A stretch of 64,000 nucleotides of DNA from Flavobacterium urumqiense (lineage in GTDB: Bacteria; Bacteroidota; Bacteroidia; Flavobacteriales; Flavobacteriaceae), in the NCBI RefSeq assembly GCF_900108015.1, contig NZ_FNVP01000013.1, positions 1 through 64,000 of the forward strand, in the 5' to 3' direction. Shown here piece by piece: positions 1,634 to 45,370 of the stretch; position 1 is the first letter of the stretch; each line of letters opens with the position of its first letter. Position numbers and translations under genes: made by a program. The notes under the pieces are model-generated. The model did not search any database, was not told where the DNA came from, and was given only the letters and a program-made list of their open reading frames with translations.

Positions 1634-1745
1634 ATAGCCCCGATAGAAATGAAAAACCTAGTAAGAGCTGGTGTTCAGCTCTTACTAGGTTTGTAATGTA
1701 TAGCGGGAAATGCGTTCTAAAAAAACGAACTCGTTCTGCTCCTAA
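1634..1745. repeat. Structured repeat element, copy A (AGCCCCGATAG ... TATAGCGGGAA)
   Basis: The block starts with AATAGCCCCGATAG, has a perfect 17-bp stem (1654-1670 with 1676-1692, loop GTGTT), and closes with AATGTATAGCGGGAA. CCCG of the left border can pair with CGGG of the right border as an outer stem. A second copy with the same borders but a different inner stem lies at 45285-45370, so the borders are conserved while the inner helix varies. It sits downstream of rhlE (minus strand) and may also end its transcript. I recall similar blocks scattered through flavobacterial genomes, but no named family. Confidence 0.7.
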
Positions 1746-1762
1746 AAAACAATAAAAATTAA

Positions 1763-3052
1763 TTATCTATTAGAACGTCGGTCATTATTTTGACTTGGAC
1801 GTCTTGGACCAAAACTATTATTGCTGCTTCGGTTTGTAGTATCTGTTTTTGGTTTTCGCGGAGTTGAATCGCGTTGTTGTCTTCCTTGACCTTGTTTAAT
1901 TGGTTCTTTGGAAGCGTTAGGATCAGGCTCGAAACCTTTGATGTTTTCTTTAGGCAAATTTAAACCCACTAATTTTTCTATATCATGTAAAAAAACCGTT
2001 TCGTCCGGACTGAATAATGAAATAGCTTCACCACTCGCACCAGCTCTTCCTGTACGACCAATGCGGTGAACGTAATCTTCAGGAATATTAGGCAATTCAA
2101 AATTAATCACATGCGGTAATAACGGGATGTCTAAACCTCGTGCTGCAATATCCGTAGCGACTAAAGCGGTTAGGCTCCCGTCTTTGAAACCTGCCAAGGC
2201 TTTGGTTCGTGCTCCTTGACCTTTGTTACCATGAATGGCAGCTGCTTTAATTCCGGCGCTAATCATGCTTTCCGTCAGTTTATTGGCGCCTTGTTTGGTT
2301 CGGGTAAAAACCAAAATTTGTTTCCAGTTTCCTTCCGTAATAAGTTTAATGATTAGTTCTGTTTTTTTCTCTTTGGCAACAGGATATACTTTTTGAATAA
2401 TAGCATCCACGGTTGTGTTTTCCGGGGTTGCTTCCACATGAACGGGATGGTGCAAAATGCCCATTGCCAATTTCTTAATGTCTTTTGAAAAGGTTGCCGA
2501 AAACATCAAGTTTTGCCTTTTTGAAGGTAATACTTTTATAATGCGCTCAATGTCTCGTACGAAACCCATGTCCAGCATACGATCAGCTTCATCCAAAACT
2601 AAGATTTCAACTTTTGCAAGCGATATTAAACCCTGATTTTGCAAATCTATTAACCGACCTGGAGTGGCAACTAAAATATCGACACCCTGACGCAGTTGTG
2701 TCACTTGTGGATTTTGGTTTACTCCCCCAAAAATAACGGTGCTTTTTAAGTCTAAAAACACACTATATTCTTTTATATTAGCCAATATTTGTGCTGCTAA
2801 TTCTCGTGTTGGAGTTAATATTAGGGCACGAATAGGTCTGTTTCTTAACTGTTGACCTTGTGATAATAATTGTAAAATAGGTAGTGTAAAACCTGCCGTT
2901 TTTCCTGTTCCTGTTTGTGCAGATGCTAATACATCTTTACCTTCTAAAATGGGTGGAATTGCTTTTTGTTGTATTGGAGAAGGTGTAGTATATCCTTTTT
3001 TGCTGATGGCTTTTAGTAAGGCATCAGATAAGCCTAATGAGTTAAATGACAT
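1763..3052 (-). CDS. rhlE: DEAD-box ATP-dependent RNA helicase, RhlE type
   Basis: The 429-residue protein carries the full DEAD-box set in order: Q motif with [10 protein letters not shown], motif I AQTGTGKT, Ia PTRELAAQ, Ib TPGRL, II DEAD, III SAT, then in the second RecA domain [12 protein letters not shown] and the [10 protein letters not shown] motif VI. A short, Arg/Asn/Gln-rich basic tail follows from about residue 375, as in RhlE, which unwinds short duplexes in ribosome assembly and RNA turnover. The [11 protein letters not shown] context and the compact core favour RhlE over DeaD or SrmB. It is monocistronic: a -7 box lies at 3108-3115 and a structured repeat follows the stop codon. 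Confidence 0.93.
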
Positions 3053-44743: not shown

Positions 44744-45252
44744 GTTGATATTGATTTGTTTACTGATGCCGATATGGCACCATCGATTTTAAGGAGATAA
44801 GAAGTTTTCTTGAGAATAAATATTCGTTTTTTAGTTCAAGAAATCTTAATAATGTTGCGTTTATAACTTATTTTGAAGTGGGAAATTCAAAAGAGGATTT
44901 TGTAAAAATAGACTTGTATTATACGGATGATTTTATTTTTGATGCAGTTTCTAAAGATACTATTAGAATGACTTCTGAAAATGAAATTATTGCAATGAAA
45001 TTATATATTATTTTGAGGTGCAGCAGAAAAAAATATTTTTGGGACTTAGATTATTATCTTGATAAAGTAAGTATTGACGAAATGATTTCGTTTAATGAAC
45101 AGCGGTAACCTTGTAACGATTGCACCAATATTAAAAGTCAATTTGTAAATTTTGAATTGGCTGATGCTGATTTTGACCCGTTACGTTTACTTAAAAAATC
45201 TTGGGAGTTTATAAAATTGGATTTTTTTGAAAGTGTCAATAAAAATTCCTAA
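44741..45252 (+). pseudogene. Broken AbiEii/AbiGii-like nucleotidyltransferase gene
   Basis: Read across two defects, the plus strand encodes SVDIDLFTDAD, then (after a one-base loss at about 44774) GTIDFKEIRSFLENKYSF, VKIDLYYTDDF, TIRMTSENEIIAMKLYIILR and KKYFWDLDYYLDKVSIDEM, then a TAA at 45106-45108 where TAT (Tyr) is expected, then PLRLLKKSWEFIKLDFFESV to the real stop at 45250-45252. DIDLFTD and the DIAAMKL-like block are the nucleotidyltransferase signatures of AbiEii-type toxins (abortive-infection or toxin-antitoxin systems). The N-terminus is missing at the junction with the TPR remnant. No antitoxin gene is left. Confidence 0.75.
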
Positions 45253-45284
45253 TTCCAAAAAAAGGCATTGAAACCCAAATTCCC

Positions 45285-45370
45285 TTAGCCCCGATAGCAG
45301 TGAAAATCCTTTTTATTCGCCTTTTTGGAGGATAAAAAGATTGCAATGTATAGCGGGAATAGCTCCAGAA
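45285..45370. repeat. Structured repeat element, copy B
   Basis: It has the same borders as the copy at 1634-1745: TTAGCCCCGATAG with TGAAAA on the left and TTGCAATGTATAGCGGGAA on the right. The inner stem differs in sequence (AATC-C-TTTTTAT with ATAAAAA-GATT, 45306-45342) but keeps the helix, and CCCG/CGGG can again close an outer stem. It follows the dead AbiEii-like gene by about 30 bases. Right of it, 45371-45581 is AT-rich with no recognised feature before the receptor gene. Confidence 0.7.

What the first reader, a model, noticed from the sequence alone, without database searches (positions are those of the whole stretch)
1634..1745. Two copies of a structured element with constant borders and a variable stem (1634-1745 and 45285-45370)
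Both copies share AGCCCCGATAG...TGAAAA(A) on the left and AATGTATAGCGGGAA on the right. The inner hairpins have different sequences but both are well paired (17 perfect bp in copy A, interrupted stem in copy B). Borders can pair through CCCG/CGGG. Conserved flanks with a helix preserved despite sequence change suggest selection on RNA or DNA structure: a small non-coding RNA, a mobile palindromic element, or an unusual terminator. I recall comparable blocks elsewhere in flavobacteria, with no named family.
Basis: partly seen in the sequence, partly recalled or inferred. Interest (0 to 1): 0.7.

Follow-up and report, generated by a model that had tools for sequence, protein, structure and literature searches.

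The report
Two copies of Flavo-1 repeat
Both stretches are copies of Flavo-1, a folded repeat already catalogued in 2010 that occurs about 90 times in this Flavobacterium-type genome; its job is unknown, and the copies keep their places between species while their inner hairpins are swapped, which looks more like a mobile DNA repeat than a small-RNA gene.

Summary
Both blocks are Rfam RF01705 (Flavo-1): 58 and 73.5 bits against a cut-off of 42. The genome holds at least 91 copies over the cut-off, and 112 of 121 congeners have it. Covariation is strong among 38 copies of this one genome (98.9% of cells paired, 41 two-sided changes, 0/500 shuffles). The Rfam model is short: a second class (16 copies here) shows an outer stem with compensatory changes and a side hairpin, making a three-way junction. 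Nothing points to a sRNA gene or a terminator: no fixed promoter, no T-run in either direction, either orientation to genes. Copies keep site and orientation between species, yet the inner hairpin is often exchanged as a block (copy A site: flanks 93% identical, arm 52%). A 47-bp palindrome is found essentially only inside Flavo-1, at GATT|G. Near-identical copies lie at unrelated loci, and nine genomes have none. Best reading: a REP-like, non-autonomous interspersed repeat acting as folded single-stranded nucleic acid. The enzyme is unknown: Y1/RAYT transposases and reverse transcriptases were tested and not linked. Known family; informative behaviour.

The parts
1635..1742 (+). Flavo-1 copy A, class 1 with a longer side-hairpin region: 5' border TAGCCCCGATAG, long arm with 17-bp stem, 3' border ATAGCGGGAA ... 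TGCTCC
   Evidence: RF01705 at 1632-1714, 58 bits; 3' extension by comparison with other copies and with orthologues
1654..1692 (+). variable arm of copy A (AAACCTAGTAAGAGCTG-GTGTT-CAGCTCTTACTAGGTTT), exchanged as a block in congeners
   Evidence: fold; orthologous sites L170-L199
45286..45366 (+). Flavo-1 copy B, class 1 with minimal side hairpin: TAGCCCCGATAG ... ATAGCGGGAATAGCTCC
   Evidence: RF01705 at 45283-45364, 73.5 bits
45304..45344 (+). variable arm of copy B, interrupted stem
1763..3052 (-). neighbour: DEAD-box RNA helicase gene whose 3' end faces copy A (element lies antisense to it); context only
   Evidence: Pfam PF00270, PF00271
45582..48224 (+). neighbour: TonB-dependent receptor gene downstream of copy B; context only
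   Evidence: Pfam PF00593, PF07715

Best explanation
Both blocks are Flavo-1 (RF01705). Flavo-1 most likely is not a set of small-RNA genes but a non-autonomous, REP-like interspersed repeat of Flavobacteriales. SHOWN: about 90 copies in this genome; a strand-specific, strictly maintained fold (long arm with two purine-rich internal loops; in class 2 also an outer stem and a side hairpin, so a three-way junction); intergenic sites in either orientation to genes; sites inherited vertically while interiors are replaced in blocks; look-alike copies at unrelated loci; its own site-specific nested palindrome. INFERRED: the folded single strand (DNA exposed in replication or repair, or less likely a transcript) is recognised by a trans-acting enzyme that copies or overwrites elements, so that structure persists only in lineages where that system is alive. 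The enzyme is not identified.
For: Family. Covariation within one genome, from anchors not fitted to the structure: pair CCC[N]GAT / AGC[N]GG takes all four Watson-Crick types; 98.9% cells paired, 41 two-sided changes, 0/500 shuffles, slid controls at most 43%. Class 2 outer stem compensations GCGTGA/TCACGC, GCGTTA/TAACGC, GCGTAA/TTACGC plus hairpin GACC..GGTC. Orientation to codirectional genes 22 sense, 34 antisense, p 0.14. No fixed promoter and no T-run. Site and orientation shared in 19 of 30 sampled copies of two congeners, but the orthologue is the closest own copy in only 6 of 26 pairs, with median identity 0.71 against 0.66 for random paralogues. Block exchange at the copy A site, flank 0.93 and arm 0.52. 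Look-alikes at unrelated loci, 97% and 96%. Occupied against empty site L209/L294. Zero copies in 9 of 121 congeners and mostly weak, decayed copies in many low-copy genomes. Nested palindrome at GATT|G.
Against: No transposition event with exact ends or target-site signature was caught; look-alike copies could also arise by gene conversion into old copies. Site conservation at 75-87% flank identity is unusual for a mobile repeat and fits a host function as well. Fast compensatory evolution could mimic replacement in the more diverged pairs. No mobilising enzyme was found: 0 of 30 Y1 transposase loci carry Flavo-1, and a genome with at least 88 copies has no Y1 match. No replication-strand bias. 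Absent by pattern or BLAST from viral contigs, phages and plasmids.
Confidence: 0.55

Rival explanations
1. A host-useful structured site, kept by selection at each place (mRNA stabiliser between genes, protein-binding or chromosome-organising site), with no mobility today.
For: Sites and orientation conserved across species; compensatory changes in stems; intergenic gaps often consist of little but the element.
Against: Either orientation to genes; 9 of 121 congeners have none; interiors exchanged as blocks; look-alike copies at unrelated sites.
Confidence: 0.25
2. A dispersed small-RNA gene family, as Rfam's type line (Gene; sRNA) implies.
For: Covariation fits a folded single strand; Weinberg 2010 rated it 'probably RNA', not cis-regulatory (PMC2864571).
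Against: No promoter at a fixed distance and no terminator; in F. psychrophilum RNA-seq, Flavo-1 hits lay indistinctly sense or antisense of transcripts and many lay in none (PMC9723704).
Confidence: 0.1
3. REPIN-type element of a RAYT (REP-associated tyrosine transposase, subclass 2.6 / group 5), whose genes in Bacteroidetes are reported to be flanked by atypical secondary structures.
For: Analogy and the report on subclass 2.6 (PMC6006769).
Against: 0 of 30 Y1_Tnp loci within 1.5 kb carry Flavo-1; no correlation with copy number, e.g. G004 and G011 have many copies and no Y1 match; no GTAG/GTGG foot.
Confidence: 0.05
4. Intrinsic or bidirectional transcription terminator.
For: Stable hairpin in intergenic space.
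Against: Sense downstream 25 nt hold T5 in only 5 of 91 copies but A5 in 52; the upstream side has T-runs, i.e. A-runs on the other strand; convergent gene pairs are the rarest context, 7 against 18 divergent.
Confidence: 0.04

Closest known systems
Flavo-1 RNA motif, Rfam RF01705 (Weinberg et al. 2010, PMC2864571)
   Same: Same family: sequence borders, long arm with symmetric internal loops, Bacteroidetes; both copies exceed the gathering score
   Different: Rfam's 76-nt model lacks the conserved 3' extension (ATAGCTCCTAAAAA), the outer stem and the side hairpin; class 2 (GCGTGAGGGAT ... AGCCCGACC ... GGTCACGCCC) is not described in the papers read here
REP / REPIN elements with RAYT transposases
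   Same: Works like: high-copy, intergenic, folded single-strand repeat, either orientation, lineage-wise loss
   Different: No GTAG/GTGG foot, no link to Y1 transposases, much longer and more elaborate fold, sites conserved between species
Palindromic elements without known transposase (Correia elements, YPAL, ERIC, RSA; from memory)
   Same: Interspersed palindromes of unknown mover, some with nested insertions
   Different: Flavo-1 keeps conserved non-Watson-Crick internal loops and exchanges its arm in place

Membership tests
Flavo-1 (RF01705) | covariance-model score at or above gathering threshold, 42 bits | tested here: met
   58 and 73.5 bits, full length 1-76
Flavo-1 (RF01705) | found in Bacteroidetes | tested here: met
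   112 of 121 congeners; named records are mainly Flavobacterium, Chryseobacterium, Halpernia and Flavobacteriaceae MAGs
Flavo-1 (RF01705) | is expressed as a small RNA (Rfam type line) | not testable with these tools
   published RNA-seq speaks against a consistent transcript (PMC9723704); no promoter signature here
REP/REPIN of RAYT | cognate tyrosine transposase gene flanked by the repeat | tested here: not met
   0 of 30 Y1_Tnp loci carry Flavo-1
REP/REPIN of RAYT | GTAG or GTGG tetranucleotide at the foot of the hairpin | tested here: not met
   border is TAGCCCNGAT or GCGTGAGGGAT in nearly all of 91 copies
REP/REPIN of RAYT | high copy, intergenic, dispersed | tested here: met
Intrinsic terminator | G+C-rich hairpin followed by a T-run | tested here: not met
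   T5 within 25 nt in 5 of 91 copies; A5 in 52

The most novel reading that the evidence does not exclude
Flavo-1 is kept alive by an unknown enzyme that recognises the folded single strand and overwrites resident copies with new hairpins (concerted evolution in place), with a satellite palindrome that inserts only at its GATT|G loops: a new kind of self-maintaining, nested palindromic element system.
Probability: 0.25. Interest if true: 0.75.

Novelty: new member of a known kind. Interest (0 to 1): 0.45.

Why it matters
Flavo-1 is one of the most numerous 'small RNA' families in bacterial databases (PMC9029176 lists it among the most abundant) and has had no function since 2010. If it is an interspersed, self-maintaining repeat, the sRNA label in Flavobacteria annotation misleads, and the fixed-site, swapped-interior behaviour gives a direct way to look for the enzyme. 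The extended three-way-junction model would also find the class 2 copies that Rfam scores poorly.

Tried and rejected
RAYT link: Y1_Tnp loci show no Flavo-1, and copy number does not follow Y1 genes. Reverse transcriptase link: RVT_1 is present in 10 of 12 copy-rich and 9 of 14 copy-poor genomes, no clear discrimination. Replication-strand bias: none seen in two closed genomes, with noisy GC skew. Outward pairing TTTT/AAAA of class 1 borders: not supported, since CCC-flanked copies keep the A-run. Phage or plasmid carriage: none found. Donor of the copy A arm in G375: no second copy of that palindrome in the genome. A hand-typed class 2 alignment was dropped in favour of scripted extraction. 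Scripts (alignment part), 61 and 74 failed or were too strict and were redone; the slice printed for L193 was off and was re-read.

Full report
WHAT IS THERE. Both blocks exist as described. A scan of the window against Rfam 15 gives exactly two hits, both Flavo-1 RF01705 on the plus strand: 1632-1714 (58 bits, E 5e-10) and 45283-45364 (73.5 bits, E 2.7e-14), gathering score 42. Copy A lies 3' of a DEAD-box helicase gene and antisense to it; copy B lies upstream of a TonB-dependent receptor gene.

COPY NUMBER AND RANGE. The assembly holds 98 matches, 91 over the cut-off; this is a lower bound because only 150 candidates were scored. Among 40 relatives, 26 have matches, mainly in the genus and in a few other families of the order. 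Of 121 genomes of the genus, 112 have it; most reach the scoring cap with best E near 1e-18, nine have none, and several low-copy genomes hold only weak, decayed copies. No match in viral contigs, phages or plasmids at the sensitivity used.

STRUCTURE. In 61 copies of this one genome, read from conserved anchors and not from a structural fit, the pair CCC[N]GAT / AGC[N]GG appears as T-A 28, C-G 17, A-T 9 and G-C 1 plus wobbles, and the pair GAT[N] / A[N]AGC as A-T 31, G-C 15, T-A 10, C-G 2. In 38 gap-free copies, 98.9% of cells are paired, 41 cells have two-sided changes (mean of shuffles 8.4, 0/500 reach it), and slid controls drop to at most 43% paired. The short stems are separated by symmetric 3x3 purine-rich internal loops whose G and A letters are conserved; their complement would be pyrimidine-rich, so the folded strand is the Rfam strand (inference). 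Copy A folds far better than shuffles on either strand because of its 17-bp stem; copy B folds better than shuffles only on the plus strand.

THE RFAM MODEL IS SHORT. Class 1 (66 of 91 copies by regular expression) continues 3' with a conserved ATAGCTCC(T)AAAAA, sometimes with an extra hairpin between GGGA and GCTCC. Sixteen copies form a second class, GCGTGAGGGAT ... AGCCCGACC-hairpin-GGTCACGCCC. There the outer 6-bp stem shows compensatory changes (GCGTGA/TCACGC, GCGTTA/TAACGC, GCGTAA/TTACGC, GCATGA/GCATGT, GCACGA/GCGTGC), the inner triplet also covaries (GGG/CC, AGG/CT, GAG/TC, GTG/AC), and a GACC..GGTC side hairpin of variable length closes a three-way junction. For class 1 the corresponding outer stem, AGC/GCT, is invariant and so only inferred.

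CONTEXT. With a crude ORF call, 56 copies lie between codirectional genes (22 sense, 34 antisense, p 0.14), 18 between divergent and 7 between convergent genes, 9 overlap some called ORF, and one has no left gene. No promoter-like TANNTTTG stands at a fixed distance upstream (13 copies against 6.4 expected, scattered), and T-runs do not follow the hairpin in either direction. This agrees with RNA-seq of F. psychrophilum, where Flavo-1 hits were indistinctly sense or antisense of transcripts and many were in none (PMC9723704). No replication-strand bias was visible in two closed genomes.

SITES STAY, INTERIORS CHANGE. At the helicase site the element is at the same spot in 26 of 29 congeners; L186, L193 and L198 lack it. 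Of 30 high-scoring copies of two congeners, 19 share both flanks with an own copy, in the same orientation, at 75-87% flank identity (my count from the table). Yet in 26 orthologous pairs the orthologue is the closest own copy in only 6, and median identity is 0.71 against 0.66 for random paralogues. At the copy A site, where immediate non-coding flanks are 0.90-0.93 identical, the arm is either compensatorily changed (CTAGTAAGAGCT to CTTCTTAGAGCT with its partner strand) or replaced by an unrelated palindrome (L171 against L177, arm 0.52). So real block exchange occurs; for the more diverged pairs fast compensatory drift remains possible. The copy B site in the closest genome is occupied too, with an extra side hairpin, and homology on the left ends right at the element.

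GAIN, LOSS AND NESTING. Near-identical copies at unrelated loci (L118/L131 97%, L115/L119 96%) agree only from TAGC to about AGCTC. One site is occupied in a congener and empty here, another is decayed here. A 47-bp palindrome, ACTTCACTT...GGAGTTCAGTGAACTTCGTTT, was searched in four genomes: by eye all but one or two decayed cases of the 30 loci read lie inside Flavo-1, after GATT and before G, in the 5' arm, the 3' arm or both, with no target duplication. Some of those copies (for example L308, L316) are not in the Rfam hit list, so nesting also hides copies.

WHO MOVES IT. The REP/RAYT idea was the obvious one, since RAYT subclass 2.6 genes in Bacteroidetes are said to be flanked by atypical structures (PMC6006769). 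It failed here: 0 of 30 Y1_Tnp loci carry Flavo-1, and genomes without Y1 matches are rich in it. Reverse transcriptases do not discriminate either. The trans factor, if there is one, is unidentified.

VERDICT. A known family; the two copies themselves are ordinary members. What is new to me, and not in the papers read, is the second class with its three-way junction, the fixed-site but exchanged-interior evolution, and the Flavo-1-specific nested palindrome. Together they favour a REP-like interspersed repeat over a small-RNA gene family, at moderate confidence.

Noticed in passing
L173, L175, L179, L188, L189, L195, L305-L334 (around position 1500): 47-bp palindrome ACTTCACTT...GGAGTTCAGTGAACTTCGTTT found essentially only inside Flavo-1, at GATT|G of either arm; both arms in L332
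   Followed up: partly
L044, L311, L314, L322, L324 (3' side of Flavo-1): recurrent side-hairpin module ACACGAGCGNAGCGAACTGACGAAGTAAATAGCTCC between GGG and GCTCC
   Followed up: no
L029, L041, L045, L115, L119, L129, L148, L165 (arm tips): another dispersed palindrome, CTGAACTTGTTTCAGGATCCTGAAACAAGTTCAG, sits at the tip of many Flavo-1 arms; TCATTGCGAGGAACGAAGCAAT does the same in L118 and L131
   Followed up: no
window 45000-45285 against L269: left flank of copy B is unrelated in the closest genome while the right flank stays similar, so a rearrangement breakpoint falls at the element's 5' border; the left flank here looks like a decayed gene
   Followed up: partly
G000:C11:142894-143136: the only Y1-transposase match of this genome (RAYT-like, 196-codon frame); a class 2 Flavo-1 lies about 2.2 kb away, not flanking it
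   Followed up: partly
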